DNA of 64,000 bases from Odiellus spinosus. Lineage: Eukaryota > Arthropoda > Arachnida > Opiliones > Phalangiidae. Each line of letters begins with the position of its first letter. Positions within the stretch are counted from its first letter, which is position 1. A model generated the notes under the pieces. The model saw nothing but the letters and a program-made list of their open reading frames with translations. It made no database searches and was not told the origin of the DNA. A program made the position numbers and the translations under genes. Positions 1-39,549 of the stretch are shown here, piece after piece. The stretch covers positions 3,782,001 to 3,846,000 of the forward strand of contig OY987232.1 in the NCBI GenBank assembly GCA_963920705.1, given 5' to 3'.

Positions 1-382
1 ATTCAAAAAAACATCTAATATCAAAAAGCGTATTTTTAAAATCTGAAATTTGACTATTTTGATATTGTATGATTTCTTGAATTGGCCATATTATTCTTGT
101 TTTTCAACGATTTTTGAAAAATCTAATTATTTAGACTGTCCAATAATTGCTCTTTCGAATGACATTGGTTTTGTCTAAATTGCCAAAATGTAACAAATAT
201 CAAATGGGTTAAAATTAAGCAAAAACGCTTAAAAATCTAAGATTATTGGATTCAAATGGACACAAAACATTTGATTTTTAAACGATTTAGACAAAATCAA
301 CACCTATCGAAAGAGCAAGTATTGATCAATCTAAAAAACAAGAGTTTTTCAAAATCCGTTGAAAACATGGAAAATATGGCAA

Positions 383-765
383 ATTCAAAAAAACATCTAA
401 TATCAAAAAGCGTATTTTTAAAAATCTGAAATTTGACTATTTTGATATTGTATGATTTCTTGAATTGGCCATATTATTCTTGTTTTTCAACGGATTTTTG
501 AAAACTCTTATTATTTAGACTGTCCAATAATTGCTCTTTCGAATGACATTGGTTTTGTCTAAATTGCCAAAACGTAACAAATATAAAATGGGTTGAAATT
601 AAACAAAAACGCTTAAAAATCAAAGATTATTGGATTCAAATGGACACAAAACATTTGATTTTTAAGCGATTTAGACAAAATCAACACCTATCGAAAGAGC
701 AATTATTGATCAATCTAAAAAAAGAGTTTTGGAAAATCCGTTGAAAAACATGGAAAATATGGCCA
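383..765. repeat. Representative satellite monomer: inverted dimer
   Basis: Within one monomer the first part, read on the minus strand, matches the second part read on the plus strand. Shared blocks include GATTTTTAAGCG, ATTTAGACAAAA, CGAAAGAGCAA, AAATCCGTTGAAAAACA and a degenerate ATATGGC(C/A)AATTCAA. Near 612-675 CGCTTAAAAATCAAA is followed, after about 30 nt, by its exact reverse complement TTTGATTTTTAAGCG. The other turn lies at the monomer junction, where ATATCAAAA faces TTTTGATAT. The first arm carries about 46 bp (the CCAAAACGTAACAAATA...AAATTAAGC part) that the second lacks. The arms run about 165 bp of shared sequence. By eye roughly four in five bases agree; this was not computed. 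Confidence 0.9.
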
Positions 766-3700
766 ATACAAAAAAACATCTAATATCAAAAAGCGTATTT
801 TTAAAATCTGAAATTTGACTATTTTGATATTGTGTGATTTCTTGAAATGGCCATATTTTTCTTGTTTTTCAACGGATTTTTGAAAACTCTACCTATTTAG
901 ACTGTCAAATAATTGCTCTTTCGAATGACATTGGTTTTGTCTAAATTGCCAAAAGGTAACAAATACAAAATGGGTTGAAATTAAGGAAACACGCTTAAAA
1001 ATCAAAGATTATTGGATTCAAATGGACACAAAACATTTGATTTTTTAGCGATTTAAACAAATTCAACACCTATCGAAAGAGCAAGAATTGATCAATCTAA
1101 ATAACAAGAGTTTTTCAAAATCCGTTGAAAACATGGAAAATATGGCAAATTCAAAAAAACATCTAATATCAAAAAGCGTATTTTTAAAATCTGAAATTTG
1201 ACTATTTTGATATTGTATGATTTCTTGAATTGGCCATATTATTCTTGTTTTTCAACGGATTTTTGAAAACTCTATTTAGACTGTCCAATAATTGCTCTTT
1301 CGAATGACATTGGTTTTGTCTAAATTGCCAAAATGTAACAAATACAAAATGGGTTGAAATTAAGGTAACAAGCTTAAAAATCAAAGATTTTTGGATTCAA
1401 ATGGACACAAAACATTTATTTTTTAAGCGATTTAGACAAATTCAACACCTATCGAAAGAGCAAGTATTGATCAATCTAAATAACAAGAGTTTTAGAAAAT
1501 CCGTTGAAAAAATGGAAAATATGGCAAATTCCAAAAAAACATCTTATCAAAAAGCGTATTTTTAAAATCTGAAATTTGACTATTTTGATATTGTATGATT
1601 TCTTGAATTGTCCATTTTATTCTTGTTTTTCAACGGATTTTTGAAAACTCTTATTATTTAGATTGTCCAATAATTGCTCTTTCGAATGACATTGGTTTTG
1701 TCTAAATTGCCAAAACATAACAAATATCAAATGGGTTAATATTAAGCAAAAACGCTTAAAAATCAAAGATTATTTGATTCAAATGGACACAAAACATTTG
1801 ATTTTTAAACGATTTAGACAAGATCAACACCTATCGAAAGAGCAAGTATTGATCAATCTAAAAAAAAGAGTTTTGGAAAATCCGTTGAAAAACATGGAAA
1901 ATATGGCCAATGCAAAAAACATCTAATATCAAAAAGCGTATTTTTAAAATCTGAAATTTGACTATTTTGATAGTGTGAGATTTCTTGAAATGGCCATATT
2001 TTTCTTGTTTTTCAACGGATTTTTGAAAACTCAACCTATTTAGACTTAGCAATAATTGCTCTTTCGAGTGACATTGGTTTTGTCTAAATTGCCAAAACAT
2101 AACAAATATAAAATGGGTTAAAATAAGCAAAAACGCTTAAAAATCAAAGATTATTGGGTTCAAATGGACACAAAACATTTAATTTTTAAGCGATTTAGAC
2201 AAAATCAACACAAATCGAACGAGCAAATATTGATCAATATAAAAACAAGAGTTTTGGAAAATCCGTTGAAAAACATGGAAATATGGCCAATACAAAAAAA
2301 CATTGAATATCAAAAAGCGTTTTTTTAAAATCTGAAATTTGACTATTTTGATATTGTATGATTTCTTGAATTGGCCATATTATTCTTGTTTTTCAACGGA
2401 TTTTTGAAAACTCTTATTATTTAGACTGTCCAATAATTGCTCTTTCGAATGACATTGGTTTTGTCTAAATTGCCAAAATGTAACAAATACAAAATGGGTT
2501 GAAATTAAGCATACACGCTTAAAAATCAAAGATTATTGGATTCAAATGGACACAAAACCTTTGATTTTTAGGCGATTTAGACAAAATCAACACCTATCGA
2601 AAGAGCAAGTATTGATCAATCTAAAAAACAAGAGATTTGGAAAATCCGTTGAAAACATGGAAAATATGGCAAATTCAAAAAAACATCTAATTTCAAAAAG
2701 CGTATTTTTAAAATCTGAAATTTGACTATTTTGATATTGTATGATTTCTTGAATTGGCCATATTATTCTTGTTTTTCAACGGATTTTTCAAAACTCTTAT
2801 TATTTAGACTGTCCAATAATTGCTCTTTCGAATGACATTGGTTTTGTCTAAATTGCCAAAACGTAACAAATATAAAATGGGTTGAAATTAAGCAAAAACG
2901 CTTAAAAATCAAAGATTATTGGATTCAAAAGGACACAAAACAATTGATTTTTAAGCGATTTAGACAAAATCAACACTTATCGAAAGAGCAAATATTGATC
3001 AATCTAAAAAAAGAGTTTTGGAAAATCCGTTGAAAAACATGGAAAATATGGCCAATACAAAAAACATCTTATATCAAAAAGCGTATTTTTAAAATCTGAA
3101 ATTTGACTATTTTGATATTGTATGATTTCTTGAATTGGCCATATTATTCTTGTTTTTCAACGGATTTTTCAAAACTCTTATTATTTAGACTGTCCAATAA
3201 TTGCTCTTTCGAATGACATTGGTTTTGTCTAAATTGCCAAAACGTAACAAATATAAAATGGGTTGAAATTAAGCAAAAACGCTTAAAAATCAAAGATTAT
3301 TGGATTCAAAATGACACAAAACATTTGATTTTTAAGCGATTTAGACAAAATCAACACTTATCGAAAGAGCAAATATTGATCAATCTAAAAAAAGAGTTTT
3401 GGAAAATCCGTTGAAAAACATGGAAAATATGGCCAATACAAAAAAACATCTAATATCAAAAAGCGTATTTTTAAAATCTGAAATTTGACTATTTTGATAT
3501 TGTATGATTTCTTGAATTGGCCATATTATTCTTGTTTTTTAACGGATTTTTGAAAACTCTATTTAGACTGTCCAATAATTGCTCTTTCGAATGTCATTGG
3601 TTTTGTCTAAATTGCCAAAATGTAACAAATACAAAATGGGTTGAAATTAAGGAAACACGCTTAAAAATCAAAGATTATTGGATTCAAATGGACACAAAAC

Positions 3701-6599
3701 ATTTGATTTTTTAGCGATTTAGACAAATTCAACACCTATCGAAAGAGCAAGTATTGATCAATCTAAATAACAAGAGTTTTAGAAAATCCGTTGAAAAAAT
3801 GGAAAATATGGCAAATTCAAAAAACATCTAATATCAAAAAGCGTATTTTTAAAATCTGAAATTTGACTTTTTTGATATTGTATGATTTCTTGAATTGGCC
3901 ATATTATTCTTGTTTTTCAACGGATTTTTGAGAACTCTTATTATTTAGACTGCCCAATAATTGCTCTTTCGAATGACATTGGTTTTGTCTAAAGTGCCAA
4001 AACGTAACAAATATAAAATGGGTTGAAATTAAGCAAAAACGCTTAAAAATCAAAGATTATTGGATTCAAATTGACACAAAACATTTGATTTTTAAGCGTT
4101 TTAGACAAAATCAACACCTATCGAAAGACAAAATATTGATCAATCTAAAAAAAAGATTTTTTTGTAAAATCCGTTGAAAAACATGGAAAATATGGCAAAT
4201 TCAAAAAAACGTCTAATATCAAAAAGCCTATTTTTAAAATCTGAAAATTGACTTTTTTGATATTGTATGATTTCTTGAATTGGCCATATTATTCTTGTTT
4301 TTCAACGGATTTTTGAAAACTCTTATTATTTAGATTGTCAAATAATTGCTCTTTCGAATGACATTGGTTTTGTCTAAATTGCCAAAACATAAGAAATATC
4401 ACATGGGTTAAAAATAAGCAAAAACGCTTAAAAATCTAAGATTATTGGATTCAAATGGACACAAAACATTTGATTTTTAAGCGATTTAGACAAAATCAAC
4501 ATCTATCGAAAGAGCAAGTATTGATCAATCTAAAAAACAAGAGATTTGGAAAATCCGTTGAAAACATGGAAAATATGGCAAATTCAAAAAACATCTAATA
4601 TCAAAAAGCGTATTTTTAAAATCTGAAATTTGACTATTTTGATATTGTATGATTTCTTGAATTGGCCATATTATTCTTGTTTTTCAACGGATTTTTGAAA
4701 ACTCTTATTATTTAGACTGTCCAATAATTGCTCTTTCGAATGACATTGGTTTTGTCTAAATTGCCAAAACGTAACAAATATAAAATGGGTTGAAATTAAA
4801 CAAAAACACTTAAAAATCAAAGATTATTGGATTCAAATGGACACAAAACATTTGATTTTTAAGCGATTTAGACAAAATTAACACCTATCGAAAGAGCAAT
4901 TATTGATCAATCTAAAAAACAAGAGTTTTGGAAAATCCGTTGAAAAACATGGAAAATATGGCAAATTCAAAAAAACATCTAATATCAAAAAGCGTATTTT
5001 TAAAATTTGAAATTTAACTATTTTGATATTGTATGATTTCTTGAATTGGAAATATTATTCTTGTTTTTCAACGGATTTTTGAAATCTCTTATTATTTAGA
5101 CTGTCAAATAATTGCTCTTTCAAATGACATTGATTTTGTCTAAATTGCCAAAACGTAACAAATATAAAATGGGTTGAAATTAAACAAAAACACTTAAAAA
5201 TCAAAGATTATTGGATTCAAATGGACACAAAACATTTGATTTTTAAGCGATTTAGACAAAATCAACACCTATCGAAAGAGCAATTATTGATCAATCTAAA
5301 AAACAAGAGTTTTGGAAAATCCGTTGAAAAACATGGAAAATATGGCAAATTCAAAAAAACATCTTATCAAAAAGCGTATTTTTAAATCAGAAATTTGACT
5401 ATTTTGATATTGTATGATTTCTTGAATTGTCCATATTATTCTTGTTTTTCAACGGATTTTTGAAAACTCTTATTATTTAGATTGTCCAATAATTGCTCTT
5501 TCGAATGACATTGGTTTTGTCTAAATTGCCAAAACATAGCAAATATCAAATGGGTTAAAATTAAGCAAAAACGCTTAAAAACCAAAGATTATTGGATACA
5601 AATGGACACAAAACATTTGATTTTTAAACGATTTAGACAAAATCAACACCTTTCGAAAGAGCAAGTATTGATAAATCTAAATAACAAGAGTTTTTCAAAA
5701 TCCGTTGAAAACATGGAAAATATGGCAAATTCAAAAAAAACATCTAATATCAAAAAGCGTATTTTTAAAATCTGAAATTTGACTATTTTGATATTGTATG
5801 ATTTCTTGAATTGGCCATATTATTCTTGTTTTCAACGGATTTTTGAAAACTCTTATTATTTAGACTGTCCAATAATTGCTCTTTCGAATGACATTGGTTT
5901 TGTCTAAATTGCCAAAACGTAACAAATACAAAATGGGTTGAAATTAAGCAAACACGCTAAAAAATCAAAGATTATTCGATTCAAATGGACACAAAACATT
6001 TGATTTTTTAGCGATTTAGACAAAATCAACACCTATCGAAAGAGCAAGTATTGATCAATCTAAAAAACAAGAGTTTTGGAAAATGCGTTGAAAACATGGA
6101 AAATATGGCAAATTCAAAAAAACATCTAATATCAAAAAGCGTATTTTTAAAATCTGAAATTTGACTATTTTGATATTGTATGATTTCTTGAATTGGCCAT
6201 ATTATTCTTGTTTTTCAACGGATTTTTGAAAACTCTTATTATTTAGATTGTCCAATAATTGCTTTTTCGAATGACATTGGTTTTGTCTAAATTGCCAAAA
6301 CATAGCAAATATCAAATGGGTTAAAATTAAGCAAAAACGCTTAAAAACCAAAGATTATTGGATACAAATGGACACAAAACATTTGATTTTTAAACGATTT
6401 AGACAAAATCAACACCTATCGAAAGAGCAAGTATTGATAAATCTAAATAACAAGAGTTTTTCAAAATCCGTTGAAAACATGGAAAATATGGCAAATTCAA
6501 AAAAACATCTAATATCAAAAAGCGTATTTTTAAAATCTGAAATTTGACTATTTTGATATTGTGAGATTTCTTGAAATGGCCATATTATTCTTGTTTTTC

Positions 6600-9500
6600 A
6601 ACGGATTTTTGAAAACTCTTATTATTTAGATTGTCCAATAATTGCTCTTTCGAATGACATTGGTTTTGTCTAAATTGCCAAAACATAACAAATATCAAAT
6701 GGGTTAATATTAAGCAAAAACGCTTAAAAATCAAAGATTATTGGATTCAAATGGACACAAAACATTTGATTTTTAAACGATTTAGACATGATCAACACCT
6801 ATCGAAAGAGCAATTATTGATCAATCTAAAAAAAAAGAGTTTTGGAAAATCCGTTGAAAAACATGGAAAATATGGCCAATGCAAAAAACATCTAATATCA
6901 AAAAGCGTATTTTTAAAATCTGAAATATGACTATTTTGATATTGTGAGATTTCTTGAAATGGCCATATTATTCTTGTTTTTCAACGGATTTTTGAAAACT
7001 CTACCTATTTAGACTTAGCAATAATTGCTCTTTCGAGTGACATTGGTTTTGTCTAAATTGCCAAAACATAACAAATATAAAATGGGTTAAAATTAAGCAA
7101 AAACGCTTAAAAATCAAAGATTATTGGGTTCAAATGGACACAAAACATTTAATTTTTAAGCGATTTAGACAAAATCAACACAAATCGAAAGAGCAAATAT
7201 TGATCAATATAAAAACAAGAGTTTTGGAAAATCCGTTGAAAAACATGGAAAATATGGCCAATACAAAAAAACATTTAATATGAAAAAGCGTATTTTTAAA
7301 ATCTGAAATTTGACTATTTTGATATTGTATGATTTCTTGAATTGGCCATATTATTCTTGTTTTTCAACGGATTTTTGAAAACTCTTATTATTTAGACTGT
7401 CAAATAATTGCTCTTTCGAATGACATTGGTTTTGTCTAAATTGCCAAAACATAACAAATATAAAATGGGTTAAAATTAAGCAAAAACGCTTAAAAATCAA
7501 AGATTATTGGGTTCAAATGGACACAAAATATTTAATTTTTAAGCGATTTAGACAAAATAAACACAAATCGAAAGAGCAAATAATGATCAATTTAAAAAAC
7601 AAGAGTTTTGAAAAATCCGTTGAAAACATGGAAAATACGGCAAATTCAAAAAACATCTAATATCAAAAAGCGTATTTTTAAAATCTGAAATTTGACTATT
7701 TTGATATTGTATGATTTCTTGAATTGGCCATATTATTCTTGTTTTTCAACGGATTTTTGAAAACTCTTATTATTTAGATTGTCCAATAATTGCTTTTTCG
7801 AATGACATTGGTTTTGTCTAAATTGCCAAAACATAGCAAATATCAAATGGGTTAAAATTAAGCAAAAACGCTTAAAAACAAAAGATTATCGGATACAAAT
7901 GGACACAAAACATTTGATTTTTAAGCGATTTAGACAAAATCAAAACTTATCGAAAGAGCAAGTATTGATCAATCTAAAAAACAAGAGTTTTGGAAAATCC
8001 GTTGAAAAACATGGAAAATATGGCAAATTCAAAAAAACATCTAATATCAAAAAGCGTATTTTTAAAATCTGAAATTTTACTATTTTGATATTGTATGATT
8101 TCTTGAATTGGCCATATTATTCTTGTTTTTCAACGGATTTTTGAAAACTCTTAATATTTAGACTGTCCAATAATTGCTCTTTCGAATGACATTGGTTTTG
8201 TCTAAATTGCCAAAATGTAACAAATACAAAATGGGTTGAAATTAAGGAAACACGCTTAAAAATCAAAGATTATTGGATTCAAATGGACACAAAACATTTG
8301 ATTTTTTAGCGATTTAGACAAAATCAACACCTATCGAAATAGCAAGTATTGATCAATCTAAATACCAAGAGTTTTAGAAAATTCGTTGAAAAAATGGAAA
8401 ATATGGCAAATTCAAAAAAACATCTAATATCAAAAAGCGTATTTTTAAAATCTGAAATTTGACTTTTTTGATATTGTATGATTTCTTGAATTGGCCATAT
8501 TATTCTTGTTTTTCAACGGATTTTTGAGAACTCTTATTATTTAGACTGCCCAATAATTGCTCTTTCGAATGACATTGGTTTTGTCTAAATTGCCAAAACA
8601 TAACAAATATCACATGGGTTAAAATTAAGCAAAAACGCTTAAAAATCAAAGATTATTGGATTCAAATGGACACAAAACATTTAATTTTTAAGCGTTTTAG
8701 ACAAAATCAACACCTATCGAAAGAGCAAGTATTGATCAATCTAAAAAACAAGAGATTTGGAAAATCCGTTGAAAACATGGAAAATATGGCAAATTCCAAA
8801 AAAACATCTTATCAAAAAGCGTATTTTTAAAATCTGAAATTTGACTATTTTGATATTGTATGATTTCTTGAATTGTCCATATTATTCTTGTTTTTCAACG
8901 GATTTTTGAAAACTCTTATTATTTAGATTGTCCAATAATTGCTCTTTCGAATGACATTGGTTTTGTCTAAATTGCCAAAACATAACAAATATCAAATGGG
9001 TTAATATTAAGCAAAAACGCTTAAAAATCAAAGATTATTGGATTCAAATGGACACAAAACATTTGATTTTTAAACGATTTAGACAAGATCAACACCTATC
9101 GAAAGAGCAATTATTGATCAATCTAAAAAAAAAAGAGTTTTGGAAAATCCGTTGAAAAACATGGAAAATATGGCCAATGCAAAAAACATCTAATATCAAA
9201 AAGCGTATTTTTAAAATCTGAAATATGACTATTTTGATATTGTGAGATTTCTTGAAATGGCCATATTATTCTTGTTTTTCAACGGATTATTGAAAACTCT
9301 ACCTATTTAGACTTAGCAATAATTGCTCTTTCGAGTGACATTGGTTTTGTCTAAATTGCCAAAACATAACAAATATAAAATGGGTTAAAATTAAGCAAAA
9401 ACGCTTAAAAATCAAAGATTATTGGGTTCAAATGGACACAAAACATTTAATTTTTAAGCGATTTAGACAAAATCAACACAAATCGAAAGAGCAAATATTG

Positions 9501-12500
9501 ATCAATATAAAAACAAGAGTTTTGGAAAATCCGTTGAAAAACATGGAAAATATGGCCAATACAAAAAAACATTTAATATGAAAAAGCGTATTTTTAAAAT
9601 CTGAAATTTGACTATTTTGATATTGTATGATTTCTTGAATTGGCCATATTATTCTTGTTTTTCAACGGATTTTTGAAAACTCTTATTATTTAGACTGTCA
9701 AATAATTGCTCTTTCGAATGACATTGGTTTTGTCTAAATTGCCAAAACATAACAAATATAAAATGGGTTAAAATTAAGCAAAAACGCTTAAAAATCAAAG
9801 ATTATTGGGTTCAAATGGACACAAAATATTTAATTTTTAAGCGATTTAGACAAAATAAACACAAATCGAAAGAGCAAATAATGATCAATTTAAAAAACAA
9901 GAGTTTTGAAAAATCCGTTGAAAACATGGAAAATACGGCAAATTCAAAAAACATCTAATATCAAAAAGCGTATTTTTAAAATCTGAAATTTGACTATTTT
10001 GATATTGTATGATTTCTTGAATTGGCCATATTATTCTTGTTTTTCAACGGATTTTTGAAAACTCTTATTATTTAGATTGTCCAATAATTGCTTTTTCGAA
10101 TGACATTGGTTTTGTCTAAATTGCCAAAACATAGCAAATATCAAATGGGTTAAAATTAAGCAAAAACGCTTAAAAACAAAAGATTATCGGATACAAATGG
10201 ACACAAAACATTTGATTTTTAAGCGATTTAGACAAAATCAAAACTTATCGAAAGAGCAAGTATTGATCAATCTAAAAAACAAGAGTTTTGGAAAATCCGT
10301 TGAAAAACATGGAAAATATGGCAAATTCAAAAAAACATCTAATATCAAAAAGCGTATTTTTAAAATCTGAAATTTTACTATTTTGATATTGTATGATTTC
10401 TTGAATTGGCCATATTATTCTTGTTTTTCAACGGATTTTTGAAAACTCTTAATATTTAGACTGTCCAATAATTGCTCTTTCGAATGACATTGGTTTTGTC
10501 TAAATTGCCAAAATGTAACAAATACAAAATGGGTTGAAATTAAGGAAACACGCTTAAAAATCAAAGATTATTGGATTCAAATGGACACAAAACATTTGAT
10601 TTTTTAGCGATTTAGACAAATTCAACACCTATCGAAAGAGCAAGTATTGATCAATCTAAATAACAAGAGTTTTAGAAAATCCGTTGAAAAAATGGAAAAT
10701 ATGGCAAATTCAAAAAAACATCTAATATCAAAAAGCGTATTTTTAAAATCTGAAATTTGACTTTTTTGATATTGTATGATTTCTTGAATTGGCCATATTA
10801 TTCTTGTTTTTCAACGGATTTTTGAGAACTCTTATTATTTAGACTGCCCAATAATTGCTCTTTCGAATGACATTGGTTTTGTCTAAAGTGCCAAAACGTA
10901 ACAAATATAAAATGGGTTGAAATTAAGCAAAAACGCTTAAAAATCAAAGATTATTGGATTCAAATTAACACAAAACATTTGATTTTTAAGCGTTTTAGAC
11001 AAAATCAACACCTATCGAAAGACAAAATATTGATCAATCTAAAAAAAAGATTTTTTTGTAAAATCCGTTGAAAAACATGGAAAATATGGCCAATTCAAAA
11101 AAAACATCTAATATTAAAAAGCGTATTTTTAAAATCTGAAATTTGACTATTTTGATATTGTTTGATTTCTTTAATTGGCCATATTATTCTTGTTTTTCAA
11201 CGGATTTTTGAAAACTCTTATTATTTAGATTGTCCAATAATTGCTCTTTCGAATGACATTGGTTTTGTCTAAATTGCCAAAACATAACAAATATAAATGG
11301 GTTAAAATTAAGCAAAAACGCTTAAAAACCAAAGATTATTGGATTCAAATGGACACAAAACATTTGATTTTTTAGCGGTTTAGACAAATTCAACACCTAT
11401 CGAAAGAGCAAGTATTGATCAATCTAAAAAACAAGAGTTTTGAAAATCCGTTGAAAAAATGGAAAATATGGCAAATTCAAAAAAACGTCTAATATCAAAA
11501 AGCCTATTTTTAAAATCTGAAAATTGACTTTTTTGATATTGTATGATTTCTTGAATTGGCCATATTATTCTTGTTTTTCAACGGATTTTTGAAAACTCTT
11601 ATTATTTAGATTGTCAAATAATTGCTCTTTCGAATGACATTGGTTTTGTCTAAATTGCCAAAACATAAGAAATATCACATGGGTTAAAAATAAGCAAAAA
11701 CGCTTAAAAATCTAAGATTATTGGATTCAAATGGACACAAAACATTTGATTTTTAAGCGATTTAGACAAAATCAACATCTATCGAAAGAGCAAGTATTGA
11801 TCAATCTAAAAAACAAGAGATTTGGAAAATCCGTTGAAAACATGGAAAATATGGCAAATTAAAAAAACATCTAATATCAAAAAGCGTATTTTTAAAATCT
11901 GAAATTTGACTATTTTGATATTGTATGATTTCTTGAATTGGCCATATTATTCTTGTTTTCAACGGATTTTTGAAAACTCTTATTATTTAGACTGTCCAAT
12001 AATTGCTCTTTCGAATGACATTGGTTTTGTCTAAATTGCCAAAACGTAACAAATACAAAATGGGTTGAAATTAAGCAAACACGCTTAAAAATCAAAGATT
12101 ATTCGATTCAAATGGACACAAAACATTTGATTTTTTAGCGATTTAGACAAAATCAACACCTATCGAAAGAGCAAGTATTGATCAATCTAAAAAACAAGAG
12201 TTTTGGAAAATGCGTTGAAAACATGGAAAATATGGCAAATTCAAAAAAACATCTAATATCAAAAAGCGTATTTTTAAAATCTGAAATTTGACTATTTTGA
12301 TATTGTATGATTTCTTGAATTGTCCATATTATTCTTGTTTTTCAACGGATTTTTGAAAACTCTTATTATTTAGATTGTCCAATAATTGCTCTTTCGAATG
12401 ACATTGGTTTTGTCTAAATTGCCAAAACATAACAAATATCAAATGGGTTAATATTAAGCAAAAACGCTTAAAAATCAAAGATTATTGGATTCAAATGGAC

Positions 12501-14530: not shown

Positions 14531-14920
14531 ATGGCAAATTCAAAAAAACATCTAATATCAAAAAGCGTATTTTTAAAATCTGAATTTGACTATTTTGATA
14601 TTGTATGATTTCTTGAATTGGCCATATTATTCTTGTTTTTCAACGGATTTTTGAAAACTCTTATTATTTAGACTGTCCAATAATTGCTCTTTCGAATGAC
14701 ATTGGTTTTGTCTAAATTGCCAAAACGTAACAAATATAAAATGGGTTGAAATTAAGCAAAAACGGTTAAAAACCAAAGATTATTGGATACAAATGGACAC
14801 AAAACATTTGATTTTTAAGCGAGTTAGACAAAGTCAACACCCATCGAAAGAGCGAGTATTGATCAATCTAAAAAACAAGAGTTTTGGAAAATCCGTTGAA
14901 AAACATGGAAAATATGGCAA

Positions 14921-27899: not shown

Positions 27900-30322
27900 A
27901 CATGGAAAATATGGCAAATTCAAAAAAACATCTAATATCAAAAAGCGTATTTTTAAAATCTGAAATTTGACTATTTTGATATTGTATGATTTCTTGAACT
28001 GGCCATATTATTCTTGTTTTTCAACGGATTTTTGAAAACTCTTATTATTAAGACTGTCCAATAATTGCTCTTTCGAATGACATTGGTTTTGTCTAAATTG
28101 CCAAAACGTAACAAATACAAAATGGGTTGAAATTAAGCAAACACGCTTAAAAATCAAAGATTATTGGATTCAAATGGACACAAAACATTTGATTTTTAAG
28201 CGATTTAGACAAAATCAACACCTATCGAAAGAGCAATTATTGATCAATCTAAAAAAAAGAGTTTTGGAAAATCCGTTGAAAAACATGGAAAATATGGCCA
28301 ATACAAAAAAACATCTAATATCAAAAAGCGTATTTTTAAAATCTGAAATTTGACTATTTTGATATTGTGTGATTTCTTGAAATAGCCATATTTTTCTTGT
28401 TTTTCAACGGATTTTTGAAAACTCTTATTATTTAGACTGTCCAATAATTGCTCTTTCGAATGACATTGGTTTTGTCTAAATTGCCAAAACATAACAAATA
28501 TAAAATGGGTTAAAATTAAGAAAACGCTTAAAAATCAAAGATTATTGGGTTCAAATGGACACAAAACATTTAATTTTTAAGCGATTTAGACAAAATAAAC
28601 ACAAATCGAAAGAGCAAATATTGATCAATCTAAAAAACAATAGTTTTGGAAAATCCGTTGAAAACATGGAAAATATGGCAAATTCAAAAAAACATCTAAT
28701 ATCAAAAAGCGTATTTTTAAAATCTGAAATTTGACTATTTTGATATTGTATGATTTCTTGAATTGGCCATATTATTCTTGTTTTTCAACGGATTTTTGAA
28801 AACTCTTATTATTTAGATTGTCCAATAATTGCTTTTTCGAATGACATTGGTTTTGTCTAAATTGCCAAAACATAGCAAATATCAAATGGGTTAAAATTAA
28901 GCAAAAACGCTTAAAAACCAAAGATTATTGGATACAAATGGACACAAAACATTTGATTTTTAAGCGATTTAGACAAAATCAAAACTTATCGAAAGAGCAA
29001 GTATTGATCAATCTAAAAAACAAGAGTTTTGGAAAATCCGTTGAAAAATATGGAAAATATGGCAAATTCAAAAAAACATCTAATATCAAAAAGCGTATTT
29101 TTAAAATCTGAAATTTTACTATTTTGATATTGTATGATTTCTTGAATTGGCCATATTATTCTTGTTTTTCAACGGATTTTTGAAATCTCTTATTATTTAG
29201 ACTGTCAAATAATTGCTCTTTCGAATGACATTGATTTTGTCTAAATTGCCAAAACGTAACAAATATAAAATGGGTTGAAATTAAGCAAAAACGCTTAAAA
29301 ACCAAAGATTATTGGATACAAATGGACACAAAACATTTGATTTTTAAGCGAGTTAGACAAAATCAACACCTATCGAAAGAGCAAGTATTCATCAATCTAA
29401 AAAAGTAGAGCTTTGGAAAATCCGTTGAAAAACATGGAAAATATGGCAAATTCAAAAAAACATCTAATATCAAAAAGCGTATTTTTAAAATCTGAAATTT
29501 GACTATTTTGATATTGTATGATTTCTTGAACTGGCCATATTATTCTTGTTTTTCAACGGATTTTTGAAAACTCTTATTATTAAGACTGTCCAATAATTGC
29601 TCTTTCGAATGACATTGGTTTTGTCTAAATTGCCAAAACGTAACAAATACAAAATGGGTTGAAATTAAGCAAACACGCTTAAAAATCAAAGATTATTGGA
29701 TTCAAATGGACACAAAACATTTGATTTTTAAGCGATTTAGACAAAATCAACACCTATCGAAAGAGCAATTATTGATCAATCTAAAAAAAAGAGTTTTGGA
29801 AAATCCGTTGAAAAACATGGAAAATATGGCCAATACAAAAAAACATCTAATATCAAAAAGCGTATTTTTAAAATCTGAAATTTGACTATTTTGATATTGT
29901 GTGATTTCTTGAAATAGCCATATTTTTCTTGTTTTTCAACGGATTTTTGAAAACTCTTATTATTTAGACTGTCCAATAATTGCTCTTTCGAATGACATTG
30001 GTTTTGTCTAAATTGCCAAAACATAACAAATATAAAATGGGTTAAAATTAAGAAAACGCTTAAAAATCAAAGATTATTGGGTTCAAATGGACACAAAACA
30101 TTTAATTTTTAAGCGATTTAGACAAAATAAACACAAATCGAAAGAGCAAATATTGATCAATCTAAAAAACAATAGTTTTGGAAAATCCGTTGAAAACATG
30201 GAAAATATGGCAAATTCAAATAAACATCTAATATCAAAAAGCGTATTTTTAAAATCTGAAATTTGACTATTTTGATATTGTATGATTTCTTGAATTGGCC
30301 ATATTATTCTTGTTTTTCAACG
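27900..30322. repeat. Duplicated satellite block, offset 1532 bp
   Basis: About 890 bp at 27900-28790 is repeated almost without change at 29432-30322 (offset 1532 bp, four monomers). Shared private marks are TTCTTGAACTGGCC (27991 and 29523), TTATTATTAAGACTG and GAAATAGCCATATTTTTC. The sequence between the two copies is made of other variants, so the higher-order unit here is four monomers. Confidence 0.8.
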
Positions 30323-33039
30323 GATTTTTGAGAACTCTTATTATTTAGACTGCCCAATAATTGCTCTTTCGAATGACATTGGTTTTGTCTAAAGTGCCAA
30401 AACGTAACAAATATAAAATGTGTTGAAATTAAGCAAAAACGCTTAAAAATCAAAGATTATTGGATTCAAATTGACACAAAACATTTGATTTTTAAGCGAT
30501 TTAGACAAATCAACACCTATCGAAAGACAAAATATTGATCAATCTAAAAAAAAGATTTTTTTGTAAAATCCGCTGAAAAACATGGAAAATATGGCCAATT
30601 CAAAAAAACATCTAATATTAAAAAGCGTACTTTTAAAATCTGAAATTTGACTATTTTGATATTGTATGATTTCTTGAATTGGCCATATTTTTCTTGTTTT
30701 TCAACGGATTTTTGAAAACTCTACCTATTTAGACTTAGCAATAATTGCTCTTTCGAGTGACATTGGTTTTGTCTAAATTGCCAAAACATAACAAATATAA
30801 AATGGGTTAAAATTAAGCAAAAACGCTTAAAAATCAAAGATTATTGGGTTCAAATGGACACAAAACATTTAATTTTTAAGCGATTTAGACAAAATCAACA
30901 CAAATCGAAAGAGCAAATATTGATCAATATAAAAACAAGAGTTTTGGAAAATCCGTTGAAATACATGGAAAATATGGCCAATACAAAAAAACATTTAATA
31001 TCAAAAAGCGTATTTTTAAAATCTGAAATTTGACTATTTTGATATTCTATGATTTCTTGAATTGGCCATATTATTCTTGTTTTTCAACGGATTTTTGAAA
31101 ACTCTTATTATTTAGACTGTCCAATAATTGCTCTTTCGAATGACATTGGTTTTGTCTAAATGGCCAAAATGTAACAAATACAAAATGGGTTGAAATTTAG
31201 CATACACGCTTAAAAATCAAAGATTATTGGATTCAAATGGACACAAAACATTTGATTTTTAGGCGATTTAGACAAAATCAACACCTATCGAAAGAGCAAG
31301 TATTGATCAATCTAAAAAACAAGAGATTTGGAAAATCCGTTGAAAACATGGAAAATATGGCAAATTAAAAAAAAACTTCTAATATCAAAAAGCGTATTTT
31401 TAAAATCTGAAATTTGACTATTTTGATATTGTATGATTTCTTGAATTGGCCATATTATTCTTGTTTTTCAACGGATTTTTGAAAACTCTTATTATTTAGA
31501 TTGTCCAATAATTGCTCTTTCGAATGACATTGGTTTTGTCTAAATTGCCAAAACATAACAAATATCAAATGGGTTAATATTAAGCAAACACGCTTAAAAA
31601 TCAAAGATTATTGGATTCAAATGGACACAAAACATTTGATTTTTTAGCGATTTAGACAAATCCAACACCTATCGAAAGAGCAAGTATTGATCAATCTAAA
31701 TAACAAGAGTTTTAGAAAATCCGTTGAAAAAGTGGAAAATATGGCAAATTCAAAAAAACCTCTTATCAAAAAGCGTATTTTTAAAATCTGAAATTTTACT
31801 ATTTTGATATTGTATGATTTCTTGAATTGGCCATATTATTCTTGTTTTTCAACGGATTTTTGAGAACTCTTATTATTTAGACTGCCCAATAATTGCTCTT
31901 TCGAATGACATTGGTTTTGTCTAAAGTGCCAAAACGTAACAAATATAAAATGGGTTGAAATTAAGCAAAAACGCTTAAAAATCAAAGATTATTGGATTCA
32001 AATTGACACAAAACATTTGATTTTTAAGCGATTTAGACAAATCAACACCTATCGAAAGACAAAATATTGATTAATCTAAAAAAAAGATTTTTTTTGTAAA
32101 ATCCGCTGAAAAACATGGAAAATATGGCCAATTCAAAAAAACATCTAATATTAAAAAGCGTACTTTTAAAATCTGAAATTTGACTATTTTGATATTGTAT
32201 GATTTCTTGAATTGGCCATATTATTCTTGTTTTTCAACGGATTTTTGAAAACTCTATTTAGACTGTCCAATAATTGCTCTTTCGAATGACATTGGTTTTG
32301 TCTAAATTGCCAAAATGTAACAAATACAAAATGGGTTGAAATTAAGGAAACACGCTTAAAAATCAAAGATTATTGGATTCAAATGGACAAAAAACATTTG
32401 ATTTTTTAGCGATTTAGACAAATTCAACAACTATCGAAAGAGCAAGTATTGATCAATCTAAATAACAAGAGTTTCAAAAATCCGTTGAAAAAATGGAAAA
32501 TATGGCAAATTCAAAAAAACCTCTAATATCAAAAAGCGTATTTTTAAAATCTGAAATTTGACTTTTTTGATATTGTATGATTTCTTGAATTGGCCATATT
32601 ATTCTTGTTTTTCAACGGATTTTTGAAAACTCTTATTATTTAGACTGTCCAATAATTTCTCTTTCGAATGACATTGGTTTTGTCTAAATTGCCAAAACGT
32701 AACAAATACAAAATGGGTTGAAATTAAGCAAACACGGTTAAAAATCAAAGATTAGTGGATTCAAATGGACACAAAACATTTGATTTTTAAGCGATTTAGA
32801 CAAAATCAACACCTATCGAAAGAGCAAGTATTGATCAATCTAAAAAAAGAGTTTTGGAAAATCCGTTGAAAACATGGAAATTATGGCAAATTAAAAAAAA
32901 ACATCTAATATCAAAAAGCGTATTTTTAAAATCTGAAATTTGACTATTTTGATATTGTATGATTTCTTGAATTGGCCATATTATTCTTGTTTTTCAACGA
33001 TTTTTGAAAACTCTTATTATTTAGATTGTCCAATAATTG

Positions 33040-34567
33040 CTCTTTCGAATGACATTGGTTTTGTCTAAATTGCCAAAACATAAGAAATATCACATGGGTT
33101 AAAATAAGCAAAAACGCTTAAAAATCTAAGATTATTGGATTCAAATGGACACAAAACATTTGATTTTTAAGCGATTTAGACAAAATCAATACCTATCGAA
33201 AGAGCAAATATTGATCAATCTAAAAAAAGAGTTTTGGAAAATCCGTTGAAAAACATGGAAAATATGGCCAATACAAAAAAACATCTAATATCAAAAAGCG
33301 TATTTTTAAAATCTGAAATTTGACTATTTTGATATTGTGTGATTTCTTGAAATGGCCATATTTTTCTTGTTTTTCAACGGATTTTTGAAAACTCTACTTA
33401 TTTAGACTGTCCAATAATTGCTCTTTCGAATGACATTGGTTTTGTCTAAATTGCCAAAACGTAACAAATATAAAATGGGTTGAAATTAAACAAAAACACT
33501 AAAAAATCAAAGATTATTGGATTCAAATGGACACAAAACATTTGATTTTTAAGCGATTTAAACAAAATCAACACCTATCGAAAGAGCAATTATTGATCAA
33601 TCTAAAAAAAAGAGTTTTGGAAAATCCGTTGAAAAACATGGAAAATATGGCCAATACAAAAAAACATCTAATATCAAAAAGCGTATTTTTAAAATCTGAA
33701 ATTTGACTATTTTGATATTGTGTGATTTCTTGAAATGGCCATATTTTTCTTGTTTTTCAACGGATTTTTGAATACTCTTATTATTTAGACTGTCAAATAA
33801 TTGCTCTTTCGAATGACATTGGTTTTGTCTAAATTGCCAAAACATAAGAAATATCACATGGGTTAAAATAAGCAAAAACGCTTAAAAATCTAAGATTATT
33901 GGATTCAAATGGACACAAAACATTTGATTTTTAAGCGATTTAGACAAAATCAATACCTATCGAAAGAGCAAATATTGATCAATCTAAAAAAAGAGTTTTG
34001 GAAAATCCGTTGAAAAACATGGAAAATATGGCCAATACAAAAAAACATCTAATATCAAAAAGCGTATTTTTAAAATCTGAAATTTGACTATTTTGATATT
34101 GTGTGATTTCTTGAAATGGCCATATTTTTCTTGTTTTTTCAACGGATTTTTGAAAACTCTACTTATTTAGACTGTCCAATAATTGCTCTTTCGAATGACA
34201 TTGGTTTTGTCTAAATTGCCAAAACGTAACAAATATAAAATGGGTTGAAATTAAACAAAAACACTAAAAAATCAAAGATTATTGGATTCAAATGGACACA
34301 AAACATTTGATTTTTAAGCGATTTAAACAAAATCAACACCTATCGAAAGAGCAATTATTGATCAATCTAAAAAAAGAGTTTTGGAAAATCCGTTGAAAAA
34401 CATGGAAAATATGGCCAATACAAAAAAACATCTAATATCAAAAAGCGTATTTTTAAAATCTGAAATTTGACTATTTTGATATTGTGTGATTTCTTGAAAT
34501 GGCCATATTTTTCTTGTTTTTCAACGGATTTTTGAATACTCTTATTATTTAGACTTTCAAATAATTG
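33040..34567. repeat. Tandem two-monomer satellite duplication, 764 bp
   Basis: The two-monomer block 33040-33803 is followed directly by a near copy at 33804-34567. Shared marks include CAAAATCAATACCTATCG at 33181 and 33945, AACATAAGAAATATCAC, and TTGAATACTCTTATTATT. The only obvious differences are an extra T in one T-run, a shorter A-run and a few substitutions. Confidence 0.8.
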
Positions 34568-37500
34568 CTCTTTCGAATGACATTGGTTTTGTCTAAATTG
34601 CCAAAACATAACAAATATAAAATGGGTTAAAATTAAGCAAAAACGCTTAAAAATCAAAGATTATTGGGTTCAAATGGACACAAAACATTTAATCTCTAAG
34701 CGATTTAGACAAAATAAACACAAATCGAAAGAGCAAATATTGATCAATTTAAAAAACAAGAGTTTTGGAAAATCCGTTGAAAACATGGAAAATATGGCAA
34801 ATTCAAAAAAACATCTAATATCAAAAAGCGTATTTTTAAAATCTGATATTTGACTATTTTGATCTTGTATGATTTCTTGAATTGGCCATATTATTCTTGT
34901 TTTTCAACGGATTTTTGAAAACTCTTATTATTTAGATTGTCCAATAATTGCTTTTTCGAATGACATTGGTTTTGTCTAAATTGCCAAAACATAACAAATA
35001 TAAAAAGGGTTAAAATTAAGCAAAAACGCTTAAAAATCAAAGATTATTGGATTCAAATGGACACAAAACATTTGATTTTTAAACGATTTAGACAAAATCA
35101 ACACCTATCGAAAGAGCAAGTATTGATCAATCTAAAAAACAAGAGATTTGGAAAATCCGTTGAAAACATGGAAAATATGGCAAATTCAAAAAAACATCTA
35201 ATATCAAAAAGCGTATTTTTAAAATCTGAAATTTGACTATTTTGATATTGTATGATTTCTTGAATTGGCCATATTATTCTTGTTTTTCAACGGATTTTTG
35301 AAAACTCTTATTATTTAGACTGTCCAATAATTGCTCTTTCGAATGACATTGGTTTTGTCTAAATTGCCAAAACGTAACAAATACAAAATGGGCTGAAATT
35401 AAGCAAACACGCTTAAAAATCAAAGATTATTGGATTCAAATGGACACAAAACATTTGATTTTTAAGCGATTTAGACAAAATCAACAACTATCGAAAGAGC
35501 AATTATTGATCAATCTAAAAAAAGAGTTTTGGAAAATCCGTTGAAAACATGGAAAATATGGCAAATTCAAAAAAACATCTAATATCAAAAAGCGTATTTT
35601 TAAAATCTGAAATTTGACTATTTTGATATTGTATGATTTCTTGAATTGGCCATATTATTCTTGTTTTTCAACGGATTTTTGAAAACTCTTATTATTTAGA
35701 CTGTCCAATAATTGCTCTTTCGAATGACATTGGTTTTGTCTAAATTGCCAAAATGTAACAAATACAAAATGGGTTGAAATTAAGCATACACGCTTAAAAA
35801 TCAAAGATTATTGGATTCAAATGGACACAAAACATTTGATTTTTAAGCGATTTAGACAAGATCAACACCTATCGAAAGAGCAAGTATTGATCAATCTAAG
35901 AAACAAGAGATTTGGAAAATGCGTTGAAAACATGGAAAATATGGCAAATTCAAAAAAACATCTAATATCAATTAGCGTATTTTTAAAATCTGAAATTTGA
36001 CTTTTTTGATATTGTATGATTTCTTGAATTGGCCATATTATTCTTGTTTTTCAACGGATTTTTGAAAACTCTTATTATTAAGATTGTCAAATAATTGCTC
36101 TTTCGAATGACATTGGTTTTGTCTAAATTGCCAATACATAACAAATATCACATGGGTTAAAAATAAGCAAAAACGCTTAAAAATCAAAGATTATTGGATT
36201 CAAATGGACACAAAACATTTGATTTTTAAGCGATTTAGACAAAATCAACACCTATCGAAAGAGCAAGTATTGAACAATCTAAATAACAAGAGTTTTTCAA
36301 AATCCGTTGAAAACATGGAAAATATGGCAAATTCAAAAAAACATCTAATATCAATTAGCGTATTTTTAAAATCTGAAATTTGACTTTTTTGATATTGTAT
36401 GATTTCTTGAATTGGCCATATTATTCTTGTTTTTCAACAGATTTTTGAAAACTCTTATTATTTAGATTGTCAAATAATTGCTCTTTCGAATGACATTGGT
36501 TTTGTCTAAATTGCCAAAACATAACAAATATCACATGGGTTAAAAATAAGCAAAAACGCTTAAAAATCAAAGATTATTGGATTCAAATGGACACAAAACA
36601 TTTGATTTTTAAGCGATTTAGACAAAATCAACACATATCGAAAGAGCAAGTATTGATCAATCTAAATAACAAGAGTTTTTCAAAATCCGTTGAAAACATG
36701 GAAAATATGGCAAATTCAAAAAAACATCTAATATCAAAAAGCGTATTTTTAAAATCTGAAATTTGACTATTTTGATATTGTGTGATTTCTTGAAATGGCC
36801 ATATTTTTCTTGTTTTTCAACAGATTTTTGAAAACTCTACTTATTTAGACTGTCAAATAATTGCTCTTTCGAATGACATTGGTTTTGTCTAAATTGCCAA
36901 AACATAACAAATATCAAATGGGTTAAAATTAAGCAAAAACGCTTAAAAATCAAAGATTATTGGATTCAAATGGAAACAAAACATTTGATTTTTAAACGAT
37001 TTAGACAAAATCAACACCTATCGAAAGAGCAAGTATTGATCAATCTAAATAAAAAGAGTTTTTCAAAATCCGTTGAAAACATGGAAAATATGGCAAATTC
37101 AAAAAAACATCTAATATCAAAAAGCGTATTTTTAAAATCTGAAATTTGACTATTTTGATATTGTATGATTTCTTGAATTGGCCATATTATTCTTGTTTTT
37201 CAACAAATTTTTGAAAACTCTTATTATTTAGACTGTCCAATAATTGCTCTTTCGAATGACATTGGTTTTGTCTAAATTGCCAAAACGTAACAAATATAAA
37301 ATGGGTTGAAATTAAACAAAAACGCTTAAAAATCAAAGATTATTGGATTCAAATGGACACAAAACATTTGATTTTTAAGCGATTTAGACAAAATCAACAC
37401 CTATCGAAAGAGCAATTATTGATCAATCTAAAAAAAAGAGTTTTGGAAAATCCGTTGAAAAACATGGAAAATATGGCCAATACAAAAAAACATCTAATAT

Positions 37501-39311
37501 CAAAAAGCGTATTTTTAAAATCTGAAATTTGACTATTTTGATAATGTGTGATTTCTTGAAATGGCCATATTTTTCTTGTTTTTCAACGGATTTTTGAAAA
37601 CTCTACCTATTTAGACCTAGCAATAATTGCTCTTTCGAGTGACATTGGTTTTGTCTAAATTTCCAAAACATAACAAATATAAAATGGGTTAAAATTAAGC
37701 AAAAACGCTTAAAAATCAAAGATTATTGGGTTCAAATGGACACAAAACATTTAATTTTTAAGCAATTTAGACAAAATCAACAGAAATCGAAAGAGCAAAT
37801 ATTGATCAATATGAAAACAAGAGTTTTTGAAAATCCGTTGAAAAACATGGAAAATATGGCCAATACAAAAAAACATTTAATATCAAATAGCGTATTTTTA
37901 AAATCTGAAATTTGACTATTTTGATATTGTATGATTTCTTGAATTGGCCATATTATTCTTGTTTTTCAACGGATTTTTGAAAACTCTTATTATTTAGACT
38001 GTCCAATAATTGCTCTTTCGAATGACATTGGTTTTGTCTAAATTGCCAAAACGTAACAAATATAAAATGGGTTGAAATTAAGCAAAAACGCTTAAAAATC
38101 AAAGATTATTGGATTCAAAAGGACACAAAACATTTGATTTTTAAGCGATTTAGACAAAATCAACACCTATCGAAAGAGCAAATATTGATCAATCTAAAAA
38201 AAGAGTTTTGGAAAATCCGTTGAAAAGCATGGAAAATATGGCCAATACAAAAAATCATCTAATATCAAAAAGCGTATTTTTAAAATCTGAAATTTGACTA
38301 TTTTGATATTGTATGATTTCTTGAATTGGCCATATTATTCTTGTTTTTCAACGGATTTTTGAAAACTCTTATTATTTAGATAGTCCAATAATTGCTCTTT
38401 CGAATGACATTGGTTTTGTCTAAATTGCCAAAACATAACAAATATAAATGGGTTAAAATTAAGCAAAAACGCTAATAAACCAAAGATTATTGGATTCAAA
38501 TGGACACAAAACATTTGATTTTTTAGCGATTTAGACAAATTCAACACCTATCGAAAGAGCAAGTATTGATCAATCTAAATAACAAGAGTTTTAGAAAATC
38601 CGTTGAAAAAATGGAAAATATGGCAAATTCACAAAAACATCTAATATTAAAAAGCGTATTTTTAAAATCTGAAATTTGACTATTTTGATATTGTTTGATT
38701 TCTTGAATTGGCCATATTATTCTTGTTTTTCAACGGATTTTTGAAAACTCTTATTATTTAGATTGTCCAATAATTGCTCTTTCGAATGACATTGGTTTTG
38801 TCTAAAATGCCAAAACATAGCAAATATCAAATGGGTTAAAATTAAGCAAAAACGCTTAAAAACCAAAGATTATTGGATACAAATGGACACAAAACATTTA
38901 ATTTTTAAGCGATTTAGACAAAATCAACACCTATCGAAAGACAAAATATTGATCAATCTAAAAAAAAGATTTTTTTGTAAAATCCGTTGAAAAACATGGA
39001 AAATATGGCCAATTCAAAAAAAACATCTAATATTAAAAAGCGTATTTTTAATATCTGAAATTTGACTATTTTGATATTGTTTGATTTCTTGAATTGGCCA
39101 TATTATTCTTGTTTTTCAACGGATTTTTGAAAACTCTTATTATTTAGATTGTCCAATAATTGCTCTTTCGAATGACATTGGTTTTGTCTAAATTGCCAAA
39201 ACATAACAAATATAAATGGGTTAAAATTAAGCAAAAACGCTTAAAAACCAAAGATTATTGGATTCAAATGGACACAAAACATTTGATTTTTTAGCGATTT
39301 AGACAAATTCA

Positions 39312-39313
39312 AA

Positions 39314-39351
<38 letters not shown>

Positions 39352-39380
39352 ATTTATATATATATATTTATATATATATA

Positions 39381-39439
<59 letters not shown>

Positions 39440-39504
39440 TTATATATATATTTATATATTTATATATATATATATTTATATATATATATATTTATATATA
39501 TATA

Positions 39505-39549
<45 letters not shown>

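What the first reader, a model, noticed from the sequence alone, without database searches (positions are those of the whole stretch)
1..39312. Satellite monomer is an inverted dimer: about 103 consecutive potential long hairpins
Each 382-bp monomer holds two inverted arms of about 165 bp with two turn points: CGCTTAAAAATCAAA facing TTTGATTTTTAAGCG, and ATATCAAAA facing TTTTGATAT. Satellites with inverted subunits are known in some beetles (Tribolium brevicornis), but most satellites are simple direct repeats. Such an array could extrude cruciforms, and either strand's transcript would be self-complementary and a natural Dicer substrate.
Basis: partly seen in the sequence, partly recalled or inferred. 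Interest (0 to 1): 0.7.

Follow-up and report, generated by a model that had tools for sequence, protein, structure and literature searches.

The report
Satellite DNA with self-flipping inverted arms
The window is the edge of a large satellite DNA block, probably of an insect, whose repeat unit is two inverted halves; elsewhere in the same genome thousands of units carry a junction that looks made by exchange between the halves, which suggests how such arrays come to change direction, while the hairpin itself shows no sign of being preserved here.

Summary
Confirmed: bases 1-39312 are about 103 head-to-tail copies of a 383-bp, 73% A+T unit made of two inverted arms of about 125-140 bp (112 of 141 aligned pairs complementary), far beyond shuffles. 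One of the two quoted turn points (CGCTTAAAAATCAAA) is a nested hairpin, not a main dyad axis. In this array the arms do not co-vary and no unit is flipped, so a maintained hairpin is not supported. The whole genome (443 Mb) changes the picture. The satellite is at least 21 Mb; the window belongs to a minority subfamily. In the dominant subfamily, 8 of 20 segments typed on contig C6 carry an inversion around one dyad axis, with breakpoints in the longest (18-bp) arm-arm identity, and arrays reverse direction at or beside it. One recombinant junction occurs 9,353 times against 46,126 parental. I infer that the arms are inverted-repeat recombination substrates that flip cores and seed kilobase palindromes. 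A young foldback transposon (9-bp target duplications) carries units into other places. Satellites with inverted subunits and transposon-satellite links are known; I found no description of flips at the arms in ten searches of open-licence papers.

The parts
1..39312 (+). Tandem array of the 383-bp inverted-dimer satellite (102.8 units, one orientation, type 1 subfamily); begins before the window
   Evidence: TRF; anchors and unit lengths; no reversed unit (for the first 8 kb; loop cores 102 forward, 0 reverse); contig context
407..439 (+). Example unit 2: loop 1, the segment at dyad axis 1 (consensus 0-33), found inverted in some units of the sampled C6 array
   Evidence: phase; modules; inversion
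440..566 (+). Example unit 2: arm A (consensus 33-160)
   Evidence: pair map; modules
481..498 (+). Example unit 2: 18-bp stretch TGTTTTTCAACGGATTTT in arm A, mirror of the stretch in arm B; site of most flips in type 2 arrays
   Evidence: sequence; tract and breakpoints
567..664 (+). Example unit 2: loop 2 at dyad axis 2 (consensus 160-258), containing most of the nested hairpin CGCTTAAAAATCAAA...TTTGATTTTTAAGCG
665..789 (+). Example unit 2: arm B (consensus 258-383), inverted relative to arm A
   Evidence: pair map; modules
733..750 (+). Example unit 2: 18-bp stretch AAAATCCGTTGAAAAACA in arm B, the longest in-register perfect match to arm A in the C6 consensus
   Evidence: sequence
39315..40348 (.). 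(TATATATT)n microsatellite directly abutting the last, truncated satellite unit
   Evidence: and sequence printed

Best explanation
This is the edge of a large, heterochromatin-like (perhaps pericentromeric) satellite of an arthropod. Shown: the repeat unit is an inverted dimer whose arms differ by about 21% while units differ by about 6%, amplified as a 383-bp unit; in the window all units face one way. Shown: in the larger type 2 subfamily, 8 of 20 axis-1 segments typed on contig C6 carry an inversion of the core with breakpoints inside the longest arm-arm identity (18 bp), spaced as two- and three-unit higher-order repeats, and arrays reverse direction in register, mostly at the same tract. 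Inferred: arm A recombines with the inverted arm B (in cis through a hairpin, or in trans), flipping the core; a flipped core then lets normal homologous exchange invert whole blocks, which builds macro-dyad arrays and kilobase palindromes. Shown: a foldback element with nearly identical copies and mostly 9-bp target duplications carries type 2 units; that it captured them once and then spread them is inferred. So the inverted arms work as a recombination substrate; any use of the hairpin itself (cruciform, dsRNA, centromere mark) is unproven.
For: Anatomy. No within-unit covariation: 11,044 of 14,382 pairs complementary against 11,042 (sd 3.4) when arms are swapped between units, 337 of 1000 swaps as high. 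Columns that still hold the pairing allele and columns that do not vary equally (0.0278 in 247 vs 0.0278 in 35). C6: of 20 axis-1 segments 9 are normal, 8 carry the core inversion, 3 are direction switches. In the 8 inversions both breakpoints fall inside the 18-bp tract or its mirror. Of 5 resolved direction switches on C6 and C130, 4 lie at the tract and 1 in the adjoining 9-bp match AAGAGTTTT. Exact genome counts: recombinant B-to-A junction 9,353, parental 46,126; window 0 of 121. In five C6 loci plus one C130 locus, 24 of 51 junctions at the 18-bp tract are recombinant, and 0 of 36 at a 12-bp control tract. Type 2 29-mer 13,219, type 1 638. Foldback element: 10 of 15 copies with exact 9-bp target duplications; unit-free coding copy; identical ends.
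Against: The identical inversions could descend from one event amplified with its higher-order repeat; only the AAGAGTTTT switch suggests a second event, so the 9,353 copies are not that many events. The window has the same 18-bp tract (44 exact B and 77 exact A junctions) but no flip. At mismatched columns the alleles lean towards pairing (23 of 51 alleles against 14.4 expected; 167 of 327 variant cells); I read this as retained ancestral alleles, but selection or arm-arm conversion would look alike. Arrays were read at sample points only (C6, C8, C5, C130). Assembly error cannot be excluded without reads. The reciprocal junction and the genome-wide 12-bp control count were asked for repeatedly and never answered. 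The pericentromeric position is inferred from size and sampled contig positions, not from CENH3 or FISH.
Confidence: 0.66

Rival explanations
1. The hairpin is under selection: each unit extrudes a cruciform or otherwise offers a dyad that helps centromeric chromatin (the non-B-DNA centromere idea).
For: Strong folds of the consensus on both strands. Arms are less variable than spacers (rank 9 of 383 circular shifts on 32 thinned units). Matched columns vary less than mismatched ones (0.020 vs 0.055; unpaired 0.044), and alleles at mismatched columns lean towards pairing (23 of 51 against 14.4 expected). Long intra-unit and array-level dyads are proposed to matter in Tribolium (PMC13081366, abstract and passages).
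Against: No covariation between arms. The matched/mismatched contrast vanishes when columns are sorted by whether the pairing allele still exists. Partner columns do not share variability (rho 0.01). Extrusion cost 0.63 kcal/mol per bp or more, over 50 kcal/mol for the smallest tested hairpin. The lowest-variability 25-bp stretch is modest in all units (61 of 2000 permutations) and not significant after thinning to 32 (369 of 2000).
Confidence: 0.15
2. The satellite is a source of self-complementary RNA cut into siRNAs or piRNAs that maintain heterochromatin.
For: Either strand folds; on C6 near-perfect palindromes of kilobase size exist.
Against: In the window perfect runs are only 12-21 bp. 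No Rfam family at gathering score in the window; two matches far below the gathering score, to microRNA precursor families, are to the hairpin. No expression data.
Confidence: 0.25
3. The satellite came out of the foldback transposon (as TIR-220 came from Tetris), so its inverted dimer is a relic of transposon arms.
For: Dispersed elements hold the units in inverted order around their centre; foldback elements are known satellite sources (PMC4079207, passages).
Against: The 10.7-kb coding copy shares the 1.02-kb ends and 149-bp repeats but has no unit. Units join the element at the same unit position (consensus 379) in 9 of 10 ends read in L011-L015 and in 15 of 18 further ends, as expected from one capture. 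Element units share a type 2 allele present in 13,219 genomic places and lie beside C6 units in the tree. The tree is unrooted, so this is not final.
Confidence: 0.12
4. The flips on C6 are assembly artefacts of collapsed or mis-joined repeats.
For: Long satellites are error-prone; 5 of 20 sampled contig starts read N.
Against: The same junction allele recurs 9,353 times; flips or switches were seen at five of five C6 places read between 0.06 and 2.0 Mb and on C130, in two- and three-unit repeats, and none in the window, C5, five transposon loci or five C8 points.
Confidence: 0.08

Closest known systems
Tribolium brevicornis 1061-bp satellite (Mravinac et al. 2005; not read, known here through PMC13081366 passages)
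   Same: A satellite unit built of two long inverted subunits
   Different: 470-bp arms and 1061-bp unit there; here about 125-140-bp arms in 383 bp, plus core inversions and direction switches seen at sequence level
Tribolium madens TmSat1/TmSat2 (PMC13081366, abstract and passages)
   Same: Dyad within the unit (about 300-bp arms in TmSat2) and at array level (macro-dyads); conserved inversion sites
   Different: There the switch sites are described as conserved segments with proposed structural meaning; here most resolved switch points coincide with the longest arm-arm identity of the unit itself, which suggests how they arise
Trichogramma brassicae 385-bp satellite (Landais et al. 2000; not read, cited in PMC13081366)
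   Same: Nearly the same unit length, inverted repeats inside the unit
   Different: 80-bp inverted repeats reported there; sequence not available to me, so identity or relatedness is untested
Tetris / TIR-220 of Drosophila virilis (PMC4079207, passages)
   Same: Non-coding foldback element with internal tandem repeats, 8-10-bp target duplications, linked to an A+T-rich satellite
   Different: There the satellite repeats arose within the terminal repeats; here the terminal repeats have their own 149-bp repeats and the satellite units sit inside, apparently captured
Tm1 Mutator/Foldback family of root-knot nematodes (PMC3169594, abstract and passages)
   Same: Foldback ends, mostly 9-bp target duplications, coding and non-coding copies
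   Different: No satellite cargo mentioned in the passages seen
Cg_HINE Helentrons of the Pacific oyster (PMC7492417, passages)
   Same: Mobile elements carrying satellite-like repeats through the genome
   Different: Helentron, no target duplication

Membership tests
Satellite DNA | Long head-to-tail arrays of a homogenised non-coding unit | tested here: met
   39.3 kb in the window at 94% identity; 55,479 exact arm junctions genome-wide
Satellites with long inverted subunits (T. brevicornis kind) | Unit consists of two long inverted subunits beyond chance | tested here: met
Satellites with long inverted subunits (T. brevicornis kind) | Sequence relationship to the known beetle or wasp satellites | not tested
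   No eukaryotic sequence collection at hand; six 16-mers of the unit occur in no paper of the library
Macro-dyad satellite arrays (Tribolium) | Array changes orientation, giving kilobase inverted blocks | tested here: met
   Met on C6 (L053, 1,474-nt arms at 98%); not seen in the window (102 loop cores forward, 0 reverse)
Centromeric satellite | Binds CENH3 / lies at the primary constriction | not testable with these tools
   Only sampled position along contigs C6 and C8
Foldback/MULE transposon (carrier element) | Long inverted ends with internal tandem repeats | tested here: met
   In five elements read whole, inverted ends of 1.0-1.75 kb (inner parts include satellite units), 98.4-99.7% identical; 149-bp repeats
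Foldback/MULE transposon (carrier element) | 8-10-bp target duplications, typically 9 | tested here: met
   Of 15 copies 10 exact 9 bp, one with 1 and one with 2 mismatches, one exact 7 bp, two without a clear one
Foldback/MULE transposon (carrier element) | MULE-domain transposase in a coding copy | tested here: inconclusive
   597-aa open frame in a 10.7-kb copy with perfect target duplication; no Pfam match even at E 10; MULE-like by eye only

The most novel reading that the evidence does not exclude
Inverted-dimer satellites reverse themselves: the two arms of the unit recombine at their longest identical stretch, producing core-flipped units. These form new higher-order repeats and, by exchange between flipped and unflipped cores, turn one-way arrays into macro-dyad arrays. 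Unit-level dyads would thus be the cause of the array-level dyads that have been proposed to matter for centromeres, without selection for a hairpin.
Probability: 0.45. Interest if true: 0.75.

Novelty: new variant of a known kind. Interest (0 to 1): 0.6.

Why it matters
Long dyads in satellites are being proposed as functionally important at centromeres. This genome offers a neutral, testable route from a dyad in the unit to a dyad in the array. It holds arrays with and without flips, a defined recombination tract, and junctions that can be counted in reads. It also shows a satellite carried to other places by a foldback element, a route that may seed new arrays.

Tried and rejected
Rejected: a chance explanation. 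Selection on pairing inferred from lower variability of matched columns: it disappears with a fairer sorting of columns. Conserved 25-bp segment: 61 of 2000 permutations with all units, 369 of 2000 after thinning 102 units to 32. CENP-B box: best match 7 of 9 essential bases, reached by 50 of 300 shuffles. 10-bp A/T periodicity: none seen. Rfam families, ribozymes included: none at gathering score. tRNA genes: none. Relatives by exact 19-mer: none in viral contigs; two hits in bacterial genomes, taken as chance and not followed. Unit in print: six 16-mers, no paper. Patterns for loop orientation (plan) were dropped after local tests showed them too strict. A first reading that only the 33-bp loop is flipped was corrected: inner arms flip too. 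A first reading that the flipped units strictly alternate was corrected on checking: TRF shows periods of 766 and 1149 bp. The resemblance of a Tetris primer to the carrier element (score 14, equalled by 1 of 300 shuffles; three other primers no better than shuffles) is only a lead.

Rows dropped before counts: one search kept unit matches of 88% or more and 220 bp or longer (39 kept); one search kept full units (query span 355 or more) and removed overlaps, which leaves the stray units on C1 out of the tree; one search read states in at most the first 40 of the window's 101 between-loop segments and, elsewhere, in segments of 250-520 bp, which leaves out one switch at L053 1946-2559 that carries a deletion. 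Counts are exact matches only, so lower bounds. One search scored 40 of 55 candidates, so 15 element copies is a lower bound too.
Full report
The observation. The first 39,312 bases are a tandem array of a 383-bp unit, 102.8 copies by TRF, 103 anchored copies spaced 378-386 bp, with mean pairwise identity 0.939 and exact or near-exact units that recur most often seven, six, fifteen or nine units apart. The unit is an inverted dimer. Its consensus against its own reverse complement scores 212-251 depending on rotation, where 500 dinucleotide shuffles reach at most 63, and each of 102 units scores at least 130. Folds of the consensus on both strands are 12-17 standard deviations below shuffles. 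The arms pair over 141 positions, 112 complementary. The two main dyad axes are near consensus 17 and 209.

Is the hairpin maintained in the window? I found no good evidence for it. If pairing were selected, arms of one unit should match each other better than arms drawn from different units. They do not: 11,044 of 14,382 pairs within units, 11,042 (sd 3.4) after swapping. Matched columns vary less than mismatched ones (0.020 vs 0.055; unpaired 0.044), and alleles at mismatched columns lean towards pairing (23 of 51 alleles, 14.4 expected; 167 of 327 variant cells). But a consensus mismatch is by itself a sign that the column has mutated, and the pairing allele is then often the old one. When columns are sorted by whether the pairing allele still occurs, variability is equal (0.0278 in 247 and 0.0278 in 35). 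Arms are somewhat less variable than spacers (rank 9 of 383 shifts, 32 thinned units), which I leave open. A cruciform of the consensus would cost at least 0.63 kcal/mol per bp; a perfect palindrome of the same arm 0.04-0.20, 20 shuffles about 1.01, flanking DNA about 1.09 (lowest 0.82), and even the smallest tested hairpin over 50 kcal/mol in all. For scale, from memory, supercoiling at sigma -0.06 gives back at most about 0.7 kcal/mol per bp in naked DNA. The estimate mixes two nearest-neighbour tables, so only the comparison with the controls should be trusted.

Where the array lies. The window is C8:3782001-3846000 of an unnamed 443-Mb assembly in 286 contigs. Of 12 sample points on C8 to the left of the window, those at 0, 0.5, 1.5, 2.5 and 3.0 Mb are a different satellite with a 23-bp period; 3.3, 3.6, 3.70, 3.76 and 3.775 Mb are the 383-bp satellite; 3.5 and 3.74 Mb are neither. 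On C6 four of four points from 0.4 to 2.0 Mb, and matches from base 232 on, are this satellite; points at 3.5, 5.0 and 7.1 Mb are not. Of 20 sampled contig starts two (C10, C14) begin with AACCT repeats, that is TTAGG telomeres, which points to an arthropod, probably an insect (the taxonomic inference is from general knowledge), and five read N. Exact counts of one arm junction, parental plus recombinant, are 55,479, so at least 21 Mb or 4.8% of the assembly.

Two subfamilies. A diagnostic base splits the units: a 29-mer with the type 2 base occurs 13,219 times, with the type 1 base 638 times (85 of the latter are in the window). A quick maximum-likelihood tree of 81 units separates the window, C5 and four of five C8-point units from the C6, transposon-borne and one C8 unit, with SH-aLRT 99 (unrooted, 48 of 68 inner forks weak). 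The window is therefore a minority subfamily.

Flips. In the 7 kb read at C6:62000-69000 and four more points, 20 axis-1 segments could be typed at arm-diagnostic sites: 9 normal, 8 with the core (loop 1 and inner arms) inverted between unflipped outer arms, 3 where the array changes direction. The flipped units alternate in the first 2.2 kb (period 766 bp) and come at two- or three-unit steps after that (766 and 1149 bp). In the 8 inverted cores both breakpoints fall in AAAATCCGTTGAAAAACA or its mirror, and this 18-bp stretch is the longest in-register arm-arm identity of the C6 consensus; the next are 12 bp. Five direction switches could be resolved on C6 and C130: four lie at the same tract, one in the neighbouring 9-bp identity AAGAGTTTT (the smoothed one search had placed that one in the tract). 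One further switch (L053 1946-2559) carries a deletion and was not placed. The recombinant B-to-A junction occurs 9,353 times in the genome, the parental one 46,126 times, 17% of the total; the first listed recombinant is on C6, although the parental list begins on C1. In the window 0 of 121 junctions are recombinant, in five transposon loci 0 of 38, in C5 0 of 10, at five C8 points 0 of 9, in five C6 loci plus one C130 locus 24 of 51; at a 12-bp control tract 0 of 36 in the same C6 and C130 loci. Two matches in the window and one at a C8 point to one recombinant form of the control tract are explained as well by a single base change. Direction switches produce inverted repeats such as 1,474-nt arms, 98% complementary, 61 nt apart. 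Type 2 arms on C6 are also more alike (113 of 141 pairs) than those of the window (108), C5 (105) or the transposon (107).

Reading of the flips. The simplest account is exchange between an arm and its inverted partner at their longest identity. It explains the in-register breakpoints, the intact outer arms and the presence of two core orientations in one higher-order repeat. Once flipped cores exist, ordinary homologous exchange between a flipped core and an unflipped one elsewhere inverts the block between them and leaves exactly the junction alleles seen in four of five switches. Whether the first step happens in cis through a hairpin or in trans between sisters cannot be told from sequence. 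Copies of one event spread by amplification, so the 9,353 copies are not 9,353 events; the AAGAGTTTT switch suggests at least a second event.

The carrier transposon. The short clusters of units read on C1-C4 (L011-L015) lie inside 4.3-5.8-kb elements with inverted ends of 1.0-1.75 kb (98.4-99.7% identical; the inner part is satellite), ending in GGCTCCGTCAACTTGG and holding 149-bp tandem repeats; stray units on C1 and C4 (L016, L017, L019) showed no such element in the comparison made. Fifteen copies were found in a capped search; the first 200 bp match at 100% at 25 ends, so they look young. Of the 15, ten have exact 9-bp target duplications, one has 1 and one 2 mismatches, one an exact 7 bp, two none clear. 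The units lie in inverted order around the centre. One of the 15, a 10.7-kb copy on C7, has the same ends (97.7 and 98.0% over 1.02 kb), a perfect 9-bp duplication, open frames of 597, at least 381 and 223 aa, and no unit. The 597-aa frame has no Pfam match, so the Mutator/foldback assignment rests on ends and target duplications, as in Tm1 (PMC3169594, abstract and passages). The shared junction (unit position 379, in 24 of 28 ends read) argues for one capture of type 2 units, then spread.

Known and new. Inverted subunits in satellites, macro-dyad arrays and satellite-carrying mobile elements are all described (PMC13081366, abstract and passages; PMC8122249, passages; PMC4079207, passages; PMC7492417, passages). 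I did not find a description of core flips at arm-arm identity or of a foldback element with captured satellite units; the searches were made, over open-licence papers only, and the 2005 and 2000 papers on the two closest unit structures could not be read.

Noticed in passing
window 39315-40348: A 1-kb (TATATATT)n array directly abuts the truncated last satellite unit, a satellite/microsatellite junction.
   Followed up: no
window 42703-48539, - strand: BEL/Pao-type LTR element with 300-nt flanking direct repeats 97% identical, next to a LINE fragment at 41297-42448.
   Followed up: partly
window 58575-61189: Transposon with long inverted ends (261 nt at 100% and 492 nt at 99%) around frames with HTH_Tnp_4 (just below its cut-off) and DDE_Tnp_4 matches; no clear target duplication.
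   Followed up: partly
window 51401-51485, 52091-52293, 62630-62974: Dispersed 16-bp minisatellite around TAGCGCAGTT (8 exact in the window, all in the first and third array); the same 10-mer occurs twice in the carrier foldback end, and a published Tetris primer holds its reverse complement AACTGCGCTA.
   Followed up: partly
window 51588-51803 and 63094-63308: Direct repeats 11.5 kb apart (89-92%), on either side of a region that holds a frame with a TNP-like RNase H match at 62305-62637.
   Followed up: no
window 54097-54359: 14-bp tandem array TTTTCAAATCATGC, 18.8 copies.
   Followed up: no
C8 (L054-L058), C12 (L077), C16 (L080), C90 (L085): A 23-bp satellite, GTGAATCTATACTTGGGAAATTT-like, at contig starts and at five of five points across the first 3 Mb of C8; possibly a main centromeric or subtelomeric satellite.
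   Followed up: partly
L020 1-7150 (C5): A different 23-bp minisatellite, TTTTGGAAAGAAATGCAAGTCCA, 316 copies, runs straight into a 383-bp array.
   Followed up: no
L051 1-1143, - strand: The coding carrier copy also has a frame with a weak ubiquitin hydrolase match (UCH, E 7.6e-5, just below its cut-off).
   Followed up: no
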